From Candidatus Brocadia pituitae (lineage in GTDB: Bacteria > Planctomycetota > Brocadiia > Brocadiales > Brocadiaceae): a stretch of DNA of 64,000 bases. Positions 21,450 through 63,246 of the stretch are shown piece after piece. Under the pieces are notes generated by a model that searched no databases, had not been told where the DNA came from, and saw nothing but the letters and a program-made list of their open reading frames with translations. Made by a program: the position numbers and the translations under genes. The stretch lies in NCBI GenBank assembly GCA_017347445.1, contig AP021856.1:3480613-3544612 (forward strand), in the 5' to 3' direction. Position 1 is the stretch's first letter. The number at the start of each line of letters is the position of its first letter.

Positions 21450-21849
21450 TTAAGCAATTTTCCATCTGATAGTGAAAAGTTCTGTTTGTTCCATTTTCTG
21501 CTTCAACCGTGCCTCAATTCCTTCAATTAATTGGTCTTTTTTGTTGTCCACATCATCCTGTGTCTGATACAAATTTAAGCGCATGGTATTTCGTTTCTTT
21601 TCCATTTCCTTTATCTGCCTGTGTGCCGTTACCTTCTCTTCAAGATTCAGTATCTTTTTCGCCTCTGTCTTTCGGTATTTTATCTCTTTATCTAATTCTT
21701 TCAATTCAATTTCCATGCTGCTCTTTACATCTTCTGCCCACCTGTCTAATTTTTCCATCTCATTATCGAAGAAACCTGCATTACGTTCAGCATTCATTTG
21801 CAGGATTTCGGCTTGCTGTTTTTGGGCTATTTGACTTATAAAATTCTTA

Positions 21850-21887
21850 ATATGAGAACCCACCCCTGATATGAGAACCCACCCCTG
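21850..21887. repeat. 19-bp tandem duplication that breaks the SNF2 helicase
   Basis: Two identical 19-mers (ATATGAGAACCCACCCCTG) back to back, at the edge of a PSQEG-type repeat cluster. 19 is not a multiple of 3; one copy gives an open frame. Confidence 0.95.
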
Positions 21888-21972
21888 AATCCCCTGCCGT
21901 ATTATCCACCCCTTCTCCCCTCCTTGGAGGGGATTGAGGTGTGGGTGTCCCTCCCAAGAGGGGACTTGTTGA
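21888..21972. repeat. PSQEG-type palindromes in the helicase gene
   Basis: CCCCTCCTTGGAGGGG and TCCCTCCCAAGAGGGG units with their tails, in frame, encoding PLLGGTPTPQSPPRRGEG just before the coiled-coil tail of the helicase. Confidence 0.88.
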
Positions 21973-24438
21973 TGCTGGCAGTGAAAAGAGCCTTTTACAT
22001 TGCTCAATATCCAATTCTGCACCTTCATCCGTAATCCCACATAATAAGATATGGTCTTCAGTTTCAAACGAATGTATAGTTAAGTTGATTACTGATAACC
22101 AGCCAGATTTTCCAACAAGTGGCTCAAGTATGGAAATTTTTGTGGGTGTATCTGAATAATTGAAAATAAGTCCGCTTTGGCTATCCGGAGCGGTTTCAGC
22201 ATTATATGATTTGCATTGTTGAATAATACGTTGTGCTAAAGGATGTCCGATCCTGTAAATATTGACGTCTTCAATATTCCTGCCAAGTCGATAGGGTCCC
22301 GAATGTATCTTTTCTTCTGGAAAAGGATTTTTCCGCAGGGTAAAAGAATACTCATCCGCTGTAAAATCAGCATAAGGTTCAAGGTAATATTTGGTAATCT
22401 GCCATAACCAGTTTTCGTATCGCGTCAGGTATTCCTTGCTTTCACGCAGACTTACCCGTAATTTTTCATGCACTTCTTCGTCGAAATTTTCCAGTAATTT
22501 TTGTCTGGCAGTTTTCAGGCGATCTTCAATGTGTTCCTCTAACTCCCTTTGTAACTGGTCAAATGAGGACTGTATCTCTTCCGGAGTCCTGCAATTCTGG
22601 TAAATCTGTGCAATGCGCTTTTCAAAATCAACCCCCGACTCGATGCTTCCCAATACTTCATCACTCGCGCCAAAGACGCCGCTAAAAAGTCTGAATTTTT
22701 CAGCCAATATCTGGTAAACCCTCTGGTCTGCTGCATTGTTTTTGTTCAAAAAATTCACCACAACCACATCAAACTTTTGTCCATAGCGATGACATCGCCC
22801 AATCCTCTGTTCAATGCGCTGTGGATTCCATGGCAGGTCGTAATTTACCACAAAAGAGCAAAATTGCAGGTTGATGCCTTCGGCGGCAGCCTCGGTTGCT
22901 ATCATAATTACCGCTTCATCTCTAAAGTAATCAACGATTGCAGCGCGCAAATTCGCCGTCTTTGAGTCTGTTACCGTATCGGTATCCTTATACTTTTCCA
23001 GCCATTGCCGATAAATTTCTCGTGATTTTGGATCGCTGTTAGAACCGTTGAATAGAACTATCTTCCCTTTAAATTCTGTACTTTCGAGAATATTTTTCAG
23101 GTATTCCTGCGTTCGTGTTGACTCAGTGAAGATAATAGCCTTCTTATTACCGCCCAGACGTTCTGTTTCGGCAAAGCCTTTTTTGAGCGCCGTCAACAGA
23201 ACTTCACCTTTTGAGTTTTGGGTAATTGACTTTGCAAGCCGCTCAAATTCCCTGAGATCGTAAATCTCTTGCTTCATGCCCTTGATTTCTTCAGGAGAAT
23301 ATTGCCTTTCCTGTTCATTGGGAAGTGGTTGCGATTCTTCCTCATCTTCCTGCCACTCGTCTTTTAATTCATCAAAGGTTTCAAAATGCTGCGCTATTGA
23401 TTTTTCTACTTCTTCGTCCAGTTGCTTTTGCCTTTCCAGAATATTTTCAAGCTTATCAGCCAGGGCTTCCAACGTTCCTGATATTGCAAAGGTAGATGAT
23501 GCCAGTAATTTTCTCAGAATCAAGGTCATCAATTGTCGTTGACTCGGAGGAAGGGCAAAAAGGTCTTCTCTTTGCAAATAGGATGACACCAGATCATATA
23601 ATCTCTGTTCATCGGAGGATGGAATAAACTCCTGTGTTACTGCTATTCTATTCGTGTATTTAACATATTCCAGGACCTGGTGGCGAAGTGTTCGTATGCA
23701 AACAGGCTTCAATCGTTCTTTCAGGCTATAAAAATCGTTCTCATCGGCTAACCTGGAATACTGACTCTTAAAACTCTTTACATCACCAAAGGTATATGCA
23801 TCAATGACACTCACAAGACCGTAAAGTTCTAAGAGAGAGTTTTGGAGCGGCGTTGCCGTAAGGAGAATCTTGGGGACGTTGGCAACGGCATTTTTGACGG
23901 CATTGGCAATTTTATTTGATGGCTTATACACATTTCTCAAACGGTGGGCTTCATCAATGACCACTAAATCCCAATTGATATTTTTAATGTAAACGTCTTT
24001 AGCCCTTGCAAAATGGTATGAGCAAATGATTATTTCATGCTGGTTGAAGGGATTTAGGTTCCCCTTTTTCATTTCCTGATTAAAAGATGACGTTTCCAAT
24101 ATAAGTGACGAAAGGAAGAATTTGTCCAGCAATTCCTGATTCCATTGTTTGCGCAGGTTTGATGGTACTATGACGAGAATTTTCCTCTTTCTTTCCGCCC
24201 ACTTTTGTGAAATAACCAGTCCGGCTTCAATGGTTTTTCCCAGTCCCACCTCATCCGCCAGTATAGCGCCCTTGGAAAGCGGGGAATGGAAGGCAAATAA
24301 GGCTGCCTCAACCTGATGTGGATTTAAATCTACCTGGGCATCCAGGAGAGAGGATGCCAGCTTTTGCATGCTATCCGATGAGCTACACTTTGTGAGTTCG
24401 AATGCAAAATATTTGGCATGATAAGGCGTTATTTGCAT

Positions 24439-25136: not shown

Positions 25137-25733
25137 TCAGTATGGTAAACGGTTTTTTATAAGCAATCGCTTTTGATTCTTGCAAAACCCGGCAGGAGGC
25201 GATATCTGAAGAACGCCTGTCACCCAGTATTTCCCAACAGGAACAGGCCTGCCATCTTTGTCCAGATGGTTCCATTTTACCTCATATACAAGCTTTTCAC
25301 CCGGACTCAGGATCTTCAATTCAGCGATTTCCTTAATATCTTTACCATTAAGATATCGCCATATTTTGATACCGGCAGGAGTGCTTACTACAAAATCGCA
25401 AGCCGGGTCTCCTAGCACTAGCAATTCAATGGGGGTTTTCCCCCGGTTCTTTACGGTGTATGTGAATTTCACCATTTCACCGGCCCATGCCTTCGGGGGT
25501 ACTTCCAGCCATGCATGGAGGTTAAAATTGACAGGTGGCGTCAAATCACGCCCCTCAACCTTTGCGTCTGAAATATTTTCAGAAGATTCTTTGCGCATGT
25601 TTCCCTCTGCCTGCCAGTCCTCATTGCTGGCCAACAATTGTGCCCAAAACGGACAAGTAAAAAACGGTATCAACAGAATGCTACAAACAATGATTATTAG
25701 ACCTCCCCTTTCGAACCCAAATTCTTTCATCAT
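25137..25733 (-). CDS. Secreted or membrane-anchored BsuPI-like proteinase inhibitor domain protein
   Basis: About 198 aa. A hydrophobic N-terminal segment (GGLIIIVCSILLIPFFTCPF) acts as signal peptide or anchor. From about residue 80 an Ig-like BsuPI domain is visible: KFTYTVKNRGKTPIELLV, DFVVSTPAGIKIWRY, ILSPGEKLVYEVKW, VPVGKYWVTGVLQ. BsuPI was described as an intracellular proteinase inhibitor of Bacillus; here it appears exported. It lies 66-80 bp downstream of a serine protease gene on the same strand, so a protease-inhibitor pairing is plausible. AAGGAAA precedes two ATG codons (25733, 25730); I use the first. Confidence 0.75.
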   Translation of the reverse strand: MMKEFGFERGGLIIIVCSILLIPFFTCPFWAQLLASNEDWQAEGNMRKESSENISDAKVEGRDLTPPVNFNLHAWLEVPPKAWAGEMVKFTYTVKNRGKTPIELLVLGDPACDFVVSTPAGIKIWRYLNGKDIKEIAELKILSPGEKLVYEVKWNHLDKDGRPVPVGKYWVTGVLQISPPAGFCKNQKRLLIKNRLPY

Positions 25734-25814
25734 TACTTTCCTTATCATGCTTGTATGTTATTAGCTGTGCAGAGGCATGATAGCCCACACCTCTGCACGG
25801 CAGGTTACCCATTC

Positions 25815-26918
25815 TTAATTGCAAAAGCCTTGGATACTAGAAAACTTACTGCTGGTAATACGGGTTGCTGAATTAGGGCAAGGACCATAAGCATGCGCCC
25901 CAATTACATAGCGATTGCCACTTACTATCTGATAAGCGCCACTACCACTCTGACCACCATATGTGTCAATTTCATAGTAGATGCGATAGCTCGTAGTAAG
26001 GCTTGATAAACCACCATAATGATAGTACTGACATAATCCACCATCTCGGTCTGCCGGATACCCCGAAATATGAGCAGTAACACCAGACAGACTTGACCAA
26101 TACCCGTAGCCCAGCCATCCAACGGCATTTCCTATAGTCCTATCGAGGCAGATTATGCCCATATCATGACTAGGGTCTTTATAATTGGTCCAACCGGTCC
26201 AGCTCAAATAATACGTCGCCCAAGCGGAACCATAAGACTTGGTGCCGCAACTGAAGCCAGGAATAACCTCGATGCTCTTCGCCCAACCACCGTGGCTTTT
26301 GTCATGGACGCAGTGTCCTGCAGTAATCGCTTTTTTTGGACCAATCATTGTTGCTGATCCAACAAACCTCGCCCCATCAGGAAAGGTGATGTATATTTTA
26401 CAATGAGTCCTCCACGGATAAGATGTCGCGGGATTAATTTTGGCGCGATTATCGGTTCCACACACACTTTCTGGCACTATCGCAGAATTGGTATCTTGCG
26501 AATCAGCATCAGAATTCGGGTCATCTTCCATTGTTGGGTTCTCTTGTATGGCAACTTCAGCATCGGAATCGTAGAGTTCCACCTCTCCTTGATAACCAGG
26601 CTCAAAAGCTTGCCGGGGCAATTTCTTTCTCGCCTTGAAAGAAATCGAATTATCCTGAAAATCCTCGATTTCCTGTCCTGCTTTCACATCATATGCTTTT
26701 AGACCCTGTGCTTTTCTCCTGGGAGCTTTACCCCACTGATCGGGTGAAGGCGGAACAATCGCGGGAATATCGAAATAAGAGGCATCAATCTGTGCCTCCG
26801 GATCATCAGGAGACAAGGGATAGGTCTTGTGTGCAGGCTCAGCCATAACCGAAAAGCATATGCAATGAATAAGAGCCATCGCAATAATGCTTAAGTATGA
26901 ATTTCTATTTATAAACAT
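25815..26918 (-). CDS. Secreted V8-like (trypsin-fold) serine endopeptidase with pro-region
   Basis: 367 aa. Signal peptide (about 1-26, ending SVMA-EP), a long acidic pro-region (about 27-155), then a catalytic domain with the trypsin-fold triad: H in ITAGHCVHD, D in SHDMGIICL and S in GGQSGSGAY. Cysteines at CGTDN and THCKI, and at the C-terminus, suggest disulphides as in V8/glutamyl endopeptidases. It is exported and probably self-activated. An AAGGAG site stands 8 bases before the ATG. A c-di-GMP-I riboswitch with terminator lies about 200 bp upstream on the same strand, so expression likely follows c-di-GMP. A BsuPI-like inhibitor gene follows. Confidence 0.9.
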   Translation of the reverse strand: MFINRNSYLSIIAMALIHCICFSVMAEPAHKTYPLSPDDPEAQIDASYFDIPAIVPPSPDQWGKAPRRKAQGLKAYDVKAGQEIEDFQDNSISFKARKKLPRQAFEPGYQGEVELYDSDAEVAIQENPTMEDDPNSDADSQDTNSAIVPESVCGTDNRAKINPATSYPWRTHCKIYITFPDGARFVGSATMIGPKKAITAGHCVHDKSHGGWAKSIEVIPGFSCGTKSYGSAWATYYLSWTGWTNYKDPSHDMGIICLDRTIGNAVGWLGYGYWSSLSGVTAHISGYPADRDGGLCQYYHYGGLSSLTTSYRIYYEIDTYGGQSGSGAYQIVSGNRYVIGAHAYGPCPNSATRITSSKFSSIQGFCN

Positions 26919-27026
26919 AGCAAAAACTCCTTATTAAAGTAAAACTTATTATCTTGCATCACGTACAGGAATATCCTCCATCGTGATGTGCCAAAATGAA
27001 ACTACTCTAAATAAACAACCTTCAAT

Positions 27027-27041
27027 CTATGAAAATATCAT
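27027..27041 (-). other. Four-codon open frame with a strong ribosome-binding site, in the leader of the protease
   Basis: AGGAGG (27052-27057, minus strand) is followed 10 bases later by ATG-ATA-TTT-TCA-TAG. It lies between the riboswitch terminator and the protease gene. It may be a leader peptide or chance. Confidence 0.3.
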
Positions 27042-27119
27042 CCTTTCACCACCTCCTCTCTGCTAAAAAAGTACCTTGCATTGCAAATAGCTGTACTCAG
27101 GCTAAATACTCCAGCAAAA

Positions 27120-27173
27120 CAAAAAAAGCCTTACCGCAAAGATTCTTATGAAAACATCTTTTGCAGTAAGGCT
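27120..27173 (-). terminator. Expression-platform terminator of c-di-GMP riboswitch 1
   Basis: AGCCTTACTGC (27163-27173, minus) pairs with GCGGTAAGGCT (27127-27137), with one G-T wobble, followed by seven T. Its 5' arm overlaps the 3' end of the aptamer, so ligand binding should block the terminator. Confidence 0.88.
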
Positions 27174-27292
27174 GTCTTTTGCTACTCAACAAAGGGATCT
27201 AATCGTCTTTTATAAGACTAATACATCCTTGTATTAACAAGACCCTATTACTTTGCGTCCCCTGATCACTCAGGGTTTGCCCTTATCAAAAT
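27152..27292 (-). ncRNA. Cyclic di-GMP-I (GEMM-I) riboswitch 1
   Basis: On the minus strand: GGCAAACC (27274-27281), a hairpin CCCTGAGTGATCAGGGG with a GNRA-type loop (GTGA), ACGCAAAGT, a variable arm, then GACAGCCTTACTGC. These are the conserved parts of the GEMM-I aptamer. The first G of GGCAAACC, which reads c-di-GMP rather than cGAMP, is kept. It controls the serine protease (and likely the inhibitor) downstream. The outer stem is weaker than in copies 2 and 3. Confidence 0.88.
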
Positions 27293-27435: not shown

Positions 27436-27501
27436 ATTAAACGAAAAAGCGTGACATGGCACATTTGTGTGTCGTCGCACAAATGTGCCATGTCACGCTT
27501 T
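27436..27501 (-). terminator. Strong intrinsic terminator after the debranching-enzyme gene
   Basis: A perfect 24-bp stem (27446-27469 with 27478-27501; outer bases AAAGCGTGACATGG) with an 8-nt loop, followed on the minus strand by TTTTTCGTTT. It isolates the upstream gene from the riboswitch-controlled protease. Confidence 0.9.
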
Positions 27502-27562: not shown

Positions 27563-29596
27563 TTATCCGTGCACGTGTTCAAAATAAGCGCGTAATATCT
27601 CGCCAACGCTCCATGCCTGGGAAATACAACCACGGGGATTATGGGGATAATCACCGTCAAGTATCTCGGAAATTGTTCCTAAACCGGCGTCAGACACATG
27701 TGCATGAAATGGTAAGAAAAGTCTTTTGATATAGGATATCGTTTCCTGTTCTCCTGCATAAGCCCTGGCATAGGCAGACGCGTACGGACCTATCAACCAT
27801 GCCCACACCGTGCCCTGGTGATATGCACTGTCTCTTTCGTAGGGATTCCCATGATAACGTCCCCTATAGTCGTTGTCTTTCGGTGACAAACTTCGCAAAC
27901 CAAGCGGCGTCAACAGATGTACTTTCACAACCTCAACAACCTTTCTCTGCTGCGTCTTTGACAGCATCGAATAAGGCAAGCTTACCGCAAATACCTGGTT
28001 TGGGCGGATAGCGCTATTCCTTATTTTACCATCAACAAAGTCATAGAGATATTGCCCCTCGTCGTACCAAAAGACATCATAAAATGATCTGCGTGTTTTT
28101 CCCGCCAAGGTATCATACCGTATCATTTCATCCGGCAAGTTCATTTCATGCGCAAGGAATGACATTATCATCAGTGCGTTATACCACAAGGCATTGATTT
28201 CTACCGCCTTTCCCATCCTCGGCGTAACAACCCAGTCACCCACCTTTGCGTCCATCCAGGTCAGTTGTACCCCGTCAACACCTGCGTAAATCAGACCATC
28301 GGTTTCCATATGGATATTATAGCGGGTACCCTTTTCGTAATAATCAACAATCTCTTTTAAAACACCATACAAATCTCTCTGTACCGTTTTCCAGTCCCTT
28401 GTAAACCGCACATACTGATATACCGCATTGATGAACCATAATGAGGCATCAACGGTATTATACTCCGGATGCTCGCCATGATCCGGAAACCGGTTTGGTA
28501 TCATCCCCTGGTCTGTATACTGTGCGTAGGAAAGCAATATCTTCCGCGCATCTTCAAACCTGCCCTGCACAAGGGTAAGGCCTGGCAGTGAGATCATCGT
28601 ATCCCTCCCCCAATCCCCAAACCAGTGATATCCGGCAATGACGCTCTTTTTGTCATCCTCCCGCCGTACGATAAAGCTATCTGCGGCAGACAAAAGGGTT
28701 TCAACCAATTCAGCGAGTTTTTTCTCCTCCTCATCATCCAAGCCTTGTGAAGGAGAGGAAATAAGAGGAGCGGTGTGATTATGAGCGTGTTGCGCTCTAC
28801 CAGTGTTTTTCCTGAGGGCGGCTTCTGCATTGAATAACCCCAAAACATCTATTTTGTCATATTCCTTCACAGATGCTACAACAAAGAAATCCTTCCCTGC
28901 ATTCAGATCGAAGTGCAAGGCACATGGGCTGAAATGGTCTTCGTGGGCATCAAGGCCACGTTCGATCTCTTTCGGATATTCCATATTTTTATACCAGAAG
29001 GAAGTGTTGTCTGTTGAGCAGGCATTATGAAAAAGATACAGGGGCGGAAGTGCATCGTAAGGTTGTAGGCATACTCCATGAGTCAGGATTTTATAACCGC
29101 TTTTCAAATGCGAATTCTCGTGGGTAACGCAGTGATAGTCACGAAATGCAATCATAACCCGCACCTTTAAAGTAACGGCGAACGGCCACTCGCCCCAGCC
29201 CGGCACTTGATAAAGAATTACGGTAGTATTTTCCCCGTGAACCATGAACACCGTTTTTTTGATGGGTATGCCGTTTACCGAATAGTCAAAGGTGGGAAAA
29301 GGATTCAGGCTGAACCGGACAAGATTTCTATACCCTTCCGGATAGATTGCATTCGGGTAGATATTGGTAGAAAGATGTGATTCTTTTCCTTTAAGGCAGA
29401 GACGCTCTTCAAGCTTCGAGAGCAACAAGGTGCGCCCCAAAGGTGGTTTTGTGGCCGCCATGAGAAGGCCGTGATACCGTCTGGTGTTTGCTCCAGATAT
29501 TGTGGATGATGCATACCCCCCGATGCCGTTGGTTTCCAGCCATTCTTTTTCAAGGGATACAGAAAGATTTTGACAAACATTTTGTGTAAAGACCAT
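27563..29596 (-). CDS. Glycogen debranching enzyme (amylo-alpha-1,6-glucosidase)
   Basis: 677 aa. The N-terminal domain begins EWLETNGIGGYASSTISG and TRRYHGLLMA, the hallmark of bacterial GDE N-domains. The C-terminal (alpha/alpha)6 catalytic domain has YHWFGDWGRDTMISLPGL (about 320-337) and YNTVDASLWFINAVYQY, as in GH133 amylo-alpha-1,6-glucosidases. It removes single glucose branches from limit dextrin during glycogen breakdown in the cytoplasm. GTG at 29602 is an alternative start. It is followed by a strong terminator; its upstream neighbour GT9 is 63 bp away in the same direction, so it may be the last gene of that transcript. Confidence 0.92.
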   Translation of the reverse strand: MVFTQNVCQNLSVSLEKEWLETNGIGGYASSTISGANTRRYHGLLMAATKPPLGRTLLLSKLEERLCLKGKESHLSTNIYPNAIYPEGYRNLVRFSLNPFPTFDYSVNGIPIKKTVFMVHGENTTVILYQVPGWGEWPFAVTLKVRVMIAFRDYHCVTHENSHLKSGYKILTHGVCLQPYDALPPLYLFHNACSTDNTSFWYKNMEYPKEIERGLDAHEDHFSPCALHFDLNAGKDFFVVASVKEYDKIDVLGLFNAEAALRKNTGRAQHAHNHTAPLISSPSQGLDDEEEKKLAELVETLLSAADSFIVRREDDKKSVIAGYHWFGDWGRDTMISLPGLTLVQGRFEDARKILLSYAQYTDQGMIPNRFPDHGEHPEYNTVDASLWFINAVYQYVRFTRDWKTVQRDLYGVLKEIVDYYEKGTRYNIHMETDGLIYAGVDGVQLTWMDAKVGDWVVTPRMGKAVEINALWYNALMIMSFLAHEMNLPDEMIRYDTLAGKTRRSFYDVFWYDEGQYLYDFVDGKIRNSAIRPNQVFAVSLPYSMLSKTQQRKVVEVVKVHLLTPLGLRSLSPKDNDYRGRYHGNPYERDSAYHQGTVWAWLIGPYASAYARAYAGEQETISYIKRLFLPFHAHVSDAGLGTISEILDGDYPHNPRGCISQAWSVGEILRAYFEHVHG

Positions 29597-29659
29597 TGTC
29601 ACCGTCGCTTTTCTCTTTTAAAAAAGATTACACCTCTCGTTCAGAACAGATTCCATGGC

Positions 29660-61111: not shown

Positions 61112-61245
61112 AACATTACGACAAAGGCAAACCCTGAGCGATCAGGGGGCGCAAAGTAAAGGATCTTGCGAGCCGCTTAAACAGTTTAAACCGCTTAAAC
61201 CGTTCAAACGGCTTATAAAAAGACAGCCTTACTGCCGAAGATGTT
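61112..61245 (+). ncRNA. Cyclic di-GMP-I (GEMM-I) riboswitch 2
   Basis: Outer stem AACAT (61112-61116) with ATGTT (61241-61245). Core: GGCAAACC, hairpin CCTGAGCGATCAGG with GCGA loop, GGCGCAAAGT, a long variable arm, then GACAGCCTTACTGCCGAAG. The G that selects c-di-GMP over cGAMP is present. It precedes the FN3-like secreted protein. Confidence 0.9.
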
Positions 61246-61326: not shown

Positions 61327-62091
61327 TTGTCCATCTTTCCTCTTAGTATTTCCTATTGTTTGTTAATGATCGGTAATATTTTCAATGTATGGTCAAATTT
61401 TACCTTTGCGGAGGCAACGCCGATGGCAATAGCTACGCCATCAGTAACACCAACACCCCAAAGTGTGGTAACACGCGAAGCAACAGACATAACTTCAAAC
61501 TCGGCAACTCTGAATGCAATAGTTCCTTCTGGAATGACAGCAGGAAGTATATATTTTGAATATGGCACTACAAGTGGGGCATACACGGATTCTGTCGATG
61601 CGGAAAGAGACGGTATGTCAGATAATGTAAGTGCGCGAATAACTGGTCTATCGGCTGTGACGACTTATTACGACAGAATAGTCGCAGTGACAAAGCCTGT
61701 GCCTACAATCAGTAACGGATACACATACGGAAATGAAGAATCCTTTACTACATCACCGGCAACACCCACAGTAACACCTACGCCCATATGCAAAGCTGAG
61801 TCTATAGATGCATCTCTCAAAACGCTGAAACTCAAGAGAGAGGAAAGCGGTAACGTAACGATTACCGTGACATGCTCTGATGGTTCACCATCTGTAAGTG
61901 AACGAGTAGAGGCTAAGATTAAATCTGGTAAGAGGTGTATATCGATCTCACCGCAAAGCGCTGAAACGAACGTTGACGGTCTGGCAATATTTACGATTAC
62001 AGCCACGAAGAAGACCGGTAATGCAAAAGTTAAATTCGAGGCAGCCAATGGCTTGAAGACGACGGTAACGGTGAAGGTTAAAAAGGAGTAA
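61327..62091 (+). CDS. Secreted protein with FN3-like and Ig-like domains
   Basis: About 254 aa. After a hydrophobic N-terminus (to about TFA-EA, residue 29) and a proline/threonine linker (PMAIATPSVTPTPQ) comes an FN3-like domain (ITSNSATLNAIVPSG, IYFEYGTTSGAYTDSV). A second PT linker (TSPATPTVTPTPIC) leads to an Ig-like domain (VTITVTCSDGSPSVSERVEA, VDGLAIFTITATKKTG). It looks like an exported adhesive or matrix protein. The start is uncertain: TTG 61327 and ATG 61366 are in frame. ATG 61316, in another frame, encodes a better signal-peptide start (MIKICPSFLLVFPIVC) whose stop overlaps ATG 61366, so a frameshift is possible. Confidence 0.75.
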   Translation: MSIFPLSISYCLLMIGNIFNVWSNFTFAEATPMAIATPSVTPTPQSVVTREATDITSNSATLNAIVPSGMTAGSIYFEYGTTSGAYTDSVDAERDGMSDNVSARITGLSAVTTYYDRIVAVTKPVPTISNGYTYGNEESFTTSPATPTVTPTPICKAESIDASLKTLKLKREESGNVTITVTCSDGSPSVSERVEAKIKSGKRCISISPQSAETNVDGLAIFTITATKKTGNAKVKFEAANGLKTTVTVKVKKE

Positions 62092-63117: not shown

Positions 63118-63246
63118 AACATACGACAAAGGCAAACCCTGAGCGATTAGGGGACGCAAAGTAAAGGATCTTTCAACGCACAAGGATGTAGTTAAAGATG
63201 CGCCTTATCCTTTCGTGAAAAAGACAGCCTTACTGCCGAAGATGTT
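63118..63246 (+). ncRNA. Cyclic di-GMP-I (GEMM-I) riboswitch 3
   Basis: Outer stem AACAT (63118-63122) with ATGTT (63242-63246). Core GGCAAACC, hairpin with GCGA loop (one G-T pair), GGACGCAAAGT, variable arm, GACAGCCTTACTGCCGAAG. Nearly the same sequence as riboswitch 2 in all conserved parts while the variable arm differs. It precedes a small frame and the CDS that leaves the window. Confidence 0.9.

What the first reader, a model, noticed from the sequence alone, without database searches (positions are those of the whole stretch)
25137..27292. c-di-GMP riboswitch controlling a secreted serine protease with an adjacent exported BsuPI-like inhibitor
Seen: a GEMM-I aptamer with overlapping terminator, then a V8-like protease (GHC, HDMG, GQSGSG) and a BsuPI-type domain protein in the same direction. 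Known: c-di-GMP governs surface attachment, and proteases such as LapG act on adhesins. Inference: rising c-di-GMP releases the terminator and induces a protease together with a protein that may restrain it, a self-limiting extracellular proteolysis module. A riboswitch-protease-inhibitor unit seems undescribed.
Basis: partly seen in the sequence, partly recalled or inferred. Interest (0 to 1): 0.8.

Follow-up and report, generated by a model that had tools for sequence, protein, structure and literature searches.

The report
Riboswitch-controlled secreted protease in anammox bacterium
An anammox bacterium has a standard c-di-GMP-sensing RNA switch in front of a secreted protease gene and a second exported-protein gene; the switch is one of about 45 similar copies in the genome, and nothing shows that the second protein inhibits the protease.

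Summary
A c-di-GMP-I aptamer (window 27159-27291, minus strand) overlaps an intrinsic terminator (27121-27172). It is followed by an exported glutamyl-endopeptidase-type serine protease (25815-26918) and an exported BsuPI-domain protein (25137-25748).

The self-limiting protease-inhibitor module is not supported. The protein pair occurs in only one relative, from another genus; its copy matches over a 1.94-kb block that stops about 40 nt short of the terminator and has no riboswitch. Nine species of the same genus have no riboswitch at this junction. BsuPI domains sampled elsewhere in the phylum do not sit beside such proteases. MEROPS withdrew the family as inhibitors, and the modelled reactive segment is only partly kept. 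A secreted protease under a c-di-GMP-I riboswitch is already known in C. difficile, with opposite sign.

The notable part is the riboswitch family: 45 c-di-GMP-I matches in this anammox genome and 19-56 in ten species of its genus, here mostly with one shared terminator and before varied, often exported, proteins. I found no description of it in the papers held. Verdict: real, but an ordinary member of a known kind.

The parts
27159..27291 (-). c-di-GMP-I (GEMM-I) riboswitch aptamer; discriminator base G20 = G
   Evidence: RF01051 54.2 bits; one of 45 in the genome
27121..27172 (-). intrinsic terminator (stem 27128-27172, T tract 27121-27127); its 5' arm overlaps the aptamer 3' end (27159-27172)
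   Evidence: sequence, fold, conserved in 25 copies
25815..26918 (-). exported serine protease of glutamyl-endopeptidase type: signal peptide about 1-25, propeptide to about E150, catalytic domain about 151-367 (H202, D252, S324)
25137..25748 (-). exported protein with a C-terminal BsuPI (PF12690) Ig-like domain at residues 90-181 (about 25206-25481)
25142..27078 (-). 1.94-kb block (gene pair plus about 160-nt leader) shared at 89.8% with a relative of another genus; excludes the riboswitch
27450..27497 (-). long perfect hairpin plus T run, likely terminator of the upstream glycogen-debranching-type gene (27563-29602), separating it from the riboswitch unit
61116..61239 (+). second c-di-GMP-I aptamer with the same terminator, before a Big_1-like protein (61327-62091)
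63122..63241 (+). third c-di-GMP-I aptamer (c-di-GMP-I-GGC) with the same terminator

Best explanation
This is a c-di-GMP-activated transcription attenuator driving a two-gene unit for exported proteins in an anammox planctomycete. When c-di-GMP is low, the 3' end of the aptamer is free to pair with GCGGUAAGGC and forms the terminator, so transcription stops after about 170 nt. When c-di-GMP is high, the bound aptamer holds that strand and RNA polymerase reads into the protease and BsuPI genes. The protease is secreted as a zymogen, probably activated by cleavage after Glu150, and cuts matrix or surface proteins after acidic residues. The BsuPI protein is exported and most likely acts as an Ig-like envelope or matrix partner; inhibition of the protease is possible but unshown. 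The unit is a recent recruit, in this lineage, to a very large c-di-GMP riboswitch regulon built from a dispersed riboswitch-terminator unit. Shown: sequence features, aptamer-terminator overlap, copy number, protein families, lack of conservation. Inferred: ligand, direction, processing, specificity, roles.
For: RF01051 match well above cut-off. The terminator 5' arm overlaps the aptamer 3' end, and the same terminator recurs in dozens of copies. G at the discriminator position. 16 GGDEF proteins in the genome. Of 40 copies with a scorable ORF, 37 have it on the same strand, and 21 of those 37 have a signal-like N-terminus against 10 of 41 window ORFs, p 0.005. Downstream families include autotransporter, PKD/cadherin, Ig-like, glycosyltransferase, polysaccharide synthesis and amidase. 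The protease matches glutamyl endopeptidase 1P3C, with Glu before the aligned mature N-terminus in both copies. Both genes are under purifying selection, dN/dS about 0.29 and 0.38. Hydrazine synthase confirms an anammox organism.
Against: No ligand or read-through data. P1 pairing is not supported by a permutation test. No convincing sigma-70 promoter before this copy. The riboswitch-gene link is found in this species only. Structure models were poor (mean pLDDT 47 and 35).
Confidence: 0.7

Rival explanations
1. One reading: the BsuPI protein inhibits the co-expressed protease, giving self-limiting extracellular proteolysis.
For: Both proteins are exported and adjacent, and the pair is kept together in a second genus. 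The residue aligned with the proposed P1 position of B. subtilis IPI (Gln66) is Glu here (K-D-I-K-E-I-A), which would suit a Glu-specific protease. The domain resembles IPI 3ISY.
Against: Glu at that position is also found in unlinked homologues (L088, L085). Two other positions of the modelled reactive segment deviate (Met63 to Asp, Thr65 to Lys). IPI was described as an inhibitor of subtilisins (S8), not S1 proteases, and MEROPS withdrew the family because inhibitor and competing substrate could not be told apart (PMC3901451). In 20 Planctomycetota genomes with BsuPI domains, an S1 protease neighbour was seen only in this pair.
Confidence: 0.15
2. The riboswitch senses a ligand other than c-di-GMP, such as c-AMP-GMP, as some GEMM-I RNAs in Geobacter do.
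For: GEMM-I variants that prefer c-AMP-GMP are known (PMC9481103, PMC8683041). Three other copies in this genome (L026, L041, L050) carry A at the discriminator position.
Against: This copy has G at that position, the c-di-GMP type.
Confidence: 0.1
3. The gene pair is expressed mainly from its own promoter in the 160-nt leader that it shares with the relative lacking a riboswitch, so the riboswitch has little effect.
For: The shared 1.94-kb block includes about 160 nt of leader, and the relative must express the pair without a riboswitch.
Against: No convincing promoter-like site on that strand in the leader.
Confidence: 0.2

Closest known systems
Clostridioides difficile CD2830 (PPEP-1/Zmp1) under c-di-GMP-I riboswitch Cdi1_12
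   Same: secreted protease gene controlled by a c-di-GMP-I riboswitch and premature termination (PMC3649979)
   Different: there c-di-GMP represses, here the architecture predicts activation; metalloprotease there, serine protease here; no BsuPI neighbour known to me there
c-di-GMP-I (GEMM-I) riboswitches with terminator platforms
   Same: same aptamer family and attenuation principle
   Different: copy number here (45, and 19-56 in ten species of the genus) with a shared near-identical terminator; C. difficile has 12 type I copies (PMC3649979)
Bacillus glutamyl endopeptidase (PDB 1P3C), family S1B
   Same: catalytic domain, triad and mature N-terminal region align
   Different: long acidic propeptide, planctomycete host, specificity untested
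Bacillus subtilis IPI (BsuPI, PDB 3ISY)
   Same: PF12690 domain; best structural match
   Different: exported, with an N-terminal extension; next to an S1 rather than an S8 protease; modelled reactive segment only partly kept

Membership tests
c-di-GMP-I riboswitch (RF01051) | covariance-model score above the gathering score over the full model | tested here: met
   54.2 against 35 bits, 1-87/87
c-di-GMP-I riboswitch (RF01051) | G at the ligand-discriminating position (c-di-GMP type rather than c-AMP-GMP type) | tested here: met
   AAGGGCAAACC in this copy; that one pocket nucleotide separates the two types is from PMC9481103; its position (G20 of Vc2) is from own knowledge
c-di-GMP-I riboswitch (RF01051) | P1 closing helix | tested here: inconclusive
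   TTTTG/CAAAA possible here, but pairing across copies does not exceed shuffles
c-di-GMP-I riboswitch (RF01051) | binds c-di-GMP | not testable with these tools
   needs in-line probing or calorimetry
transcriptional ON attenuator | terminator 5' arm overlaps the aptamer, so that the two exclude each other | tested here: met
   27159-27172 shared; stem conserved in 25 copies
glutamyl endopeptidase (S1B) | sequence match to a characterised member and an intact catalytic triad | tested here: met
   1P3C E 2.4e-21; H202, D252, S324
glutamyl endopeptidase (S1B) | cleavage after Glu | not testable with these tools
   His of GAHAYG aligns with His of GVHNAG in 1P3C, a residue I recall as part of the S1 site; activity unknown
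BsuPI / IPI | PF12690 domain | tested here: met
   38.5 bits against 22.9; profile of relatives finds 3ISY, E 8e-16
BsuPI / IPI | modelled reactive segment 62-68 (KMFTQAF) with central Thr | tested here: not met
   aligned segment is K-D-I-K-E-I-A; this segment is itself only a docking proposal (PMC3901451)
BsuPI / IPI | inhibits a serine protease | not testable with these tools
   needs an enzyme assay
conserved riboswitch-protease-inhibitor module | conserved linkage of all three parts | tested here: not met
   pair found in one relative, without riboswitch

The most novel reading that the evidence does not exclude
In anammox bacteria the c-di-GMP-I aptamer plus its near-identical terminator behaves as a dispersed regulatory cassette that moves or is copied in front of new genes, including horizontally acquired ones such as this protease-BsuPI pair. 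This would place dozens of surface and matrix genes under c-di-GMP, species by species.
Probability: 0.25. Interest if true: 0.65.

Novelty: new member of a known kind. Interest (0 to 1): 0.4.

Why it matters
The single locus is a modest addition: one more c-di-GMP-controlled secreted protease, in bacteria that live as granules and biofilms and are not available in pure culture. The wider point matters more. If about 45 genes, many for exported or envelope proteins, are switched by one RNA class, c-di-GMP in anammox granules could be read out in metatranscriptomes as the ratio of terminated leader to full transcript, without genetics. The spread of a common riboswitch-terminator unit would also be a good case for studying how riboswitches come to stand in front of new genes.

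Tried and rejected
P1 covariation: the TTTTG/CAAAA pairing of this copy looked compensatory, but a permutation test over 41 copies gave no convincing signal, so I dropped it. A search of named bacterial genomes with the protease found nothing. Structure models of both proteins had low confidence; only the BsuPI model was compared with solved structures, where 3ISY came first, and I treat that as weak support. A promoter search before this copy gave nothing convincing. Other V8-like proteases in relatives (G006, G018, G025) were checked as possible conserved riboswitch-protease links: in G018 the riboswitch lies on the far side of the protease, in G006 other ORFs, the first resembling a transposase, lie between, and in G025 none is near. 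NCBIfam gave nothing above cut-off and PADLOC nothing for the pair.

Full report
WHAT IS THERE. The window lies at 3,480,613-3,544,612 of a 4.08-Mb single-contig genome. The genome encodes hydrazine synthase alpha, so the organism is an anammox planctomycete; I did not obtain its name. On the minus strand, Rfam RF01051 matches 27291-27159 with 54.2 bits (gathering score 35), over the whole model. The aptamer runs directly into an intrinsic terminator, GCCTTACTGCAAA..TTTGCGGTAAGGC plus T7. The last 14 nt of the aptamer are the first arm of that terminator, so ligand-bound aptamer and terminator should exclude each other. The leader folds far better than shuffled sequence (z -6.5). This predicts that c-di-GMP turns the genes on. 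The base that separates c-di-GMP from c-AMP-GMP sensors is G, the c-di-GMP type.

THE PROTEASE. The 367-aa ORF has a signal peptide, an acidic propeptide and a chymotrypsin-type catalytic domain with H202, D252 and S324, invariant in the four relatives aligned. Its best solved relative is Bacillus glutamyl endopeptidase 1P3C (E 2.4e-21). The alignment starts at V152 against residue 2 of the 1P3C chain; both this protein (VPE-SVCGTDNR) and its close relative (VAE-TVCGADNR) have Glu two residues before that Val. Activation by cleavage after Glu150 is therefore an inference, as is Glu specificity.

THE BsuPI PROTEIN. PF12690 is matched with 38.5 bits. A profile of this protein and planctomycete relatives finds B. 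subtilis IPI, 3ISY, at E 8e-16. A low-confidence model also puts 3ISY first (mean pLDDT 47). IPI is a doubtful guide to function: MEROPS dropped the family because inhibitor and competing substrate could not be told apart, and the nearest structural neighbour of IPI was the biofilm matrix protein RbmA (PMC3901451). The modelled reactive segment of IPI, residues 62-68 KMFTQAF, aligns here with KDIKEIA. The P1-like residue is Glu, which would suit a Glu-specific enzyme. However, Glu also occurs there in homologues that have no protease beside them, and two other positions deviate.

CONSERVATION. Among 59 relatives, both proteins occur only in G015, of another genus (86% and 82% identity). The DNA there matches as one block of 1943 bp at 89.8% identity, window 25142-27078: the gene pair plus its leader. 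The block stops about 40 nt before the riboswitch terminator, and G015 has no riboswitch upstream. dN/dS of 0.29 and 0.38 shows that both genes are maintained. Ten species of the same genus lack both genes (one has a distant protease relative at 31% identity). The junction downstream of the debranching-enzyme gene, examined in nine of them, carries no riboswitch, and its sequence does not match this locus. The junction is a variable site, and the riboswitch and gene pair most simply came together in this lineage. In 20 Planctomycetota genomes with BsuPI domains, within 1.5 kb of the 30 domains fetched, only these two copies have such a protease.

THE RIBOSWITCH FAMILY. The genome holds 45 RF01051 matches, 44 of them over the gathering score. 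Ten species of the genus hold 19 to 56, other genera of the family 1 to 28. Most copies here share one terminator sequence; an exact version of it occurs 16 times and never in the reversed control. The stem is paired in 94.4% of cells over 25 copies against 34-54% with slid partners; since the copies are so alike, covariation is slight. Of 40 copies with an ORF of at least 140 aa nearby, 37 have it on the same strand, and 21 of those 37 have a signal-like N-terminus against 10 of 41 window ORFs (p 0.005, a crude rule and a small background). Downstream Pfam families include an autotransporter barrel, PKD/cadherin and Ig-like repeats, glycosyltransferase 2, polysaccharide synthesis, amidase, sigma-54 activators and cytochrome c', but also transposases. 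The genome has 16 GGDEF domains.

MECHANISM AND COMPARISON. Best reading: high c-di-GMP, typical of aggregated cells, lets transcription through to a secreted zymogen protease and an exported Ig-like protein. Steps after transcription are inferred. The closest precedent is CD2830 of C. difficile, a secreted protease under a c-di-GMP-I riboswitch that c-di-GMP represses (PMC3649979). Literature searches for riboswitches in anammox bacteria found no description of this set, but only openly licensed papers are held.

VERDICT. The control logic is plausible. The self-limiting protease-inhibitor module is unsupported, and the three-part unit is specific to this species among those sampled. The unusual part is the size and uniformity of the riboswitch family around it.

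Noticed in passing
whole genome; window 27159-27291, 61116-61239, 63122-63241: 45 c-di-GMP-I riboswitch matches in one 4.08-Mb genome and 19-56 in ten species of its genus, most here with a near-identical terminator.
   Followed up: partly
L042, L050, L052: Riboswitch cores apparently interrupted in the P3 region by a repeat (CACCGCAAAGACGCTAAGGTCGCAAAG-like); in L052 the usual terminator lies about 240 nt further on.
   Followed up: partly
L026, L041, L050: Three copies carry A at the discriminator position, as in c-AMP-GMP-sensing GEMM-I variants; L026 precedes a sigma-54 activator.
   Followed up: no
L001/L002 (genome 2195100-2195293): Two c-di-GMP-I aptamers in tandem, 32 nt apart, before a large exported protein; a similar protein follows a single aptamer at L005. 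These aptamers lack the shared terminator.
   Followed up: no
window 21847-24438: SNF2-type helicase matching the DrmD (DISARM) model at 695 bits; other window genes nearby may form a defence island.
   Followed up: no
window 27450-27497: Very long perfect hairpin with T run on the minus strand, likely the terminator of the debranching-enzyme gene.
   Followed up: no
genome 857532-857846 and 3029406-3029720: Two hydrazine synthase alpha matches with identical scores, on opposite strands.
   Followed up: no
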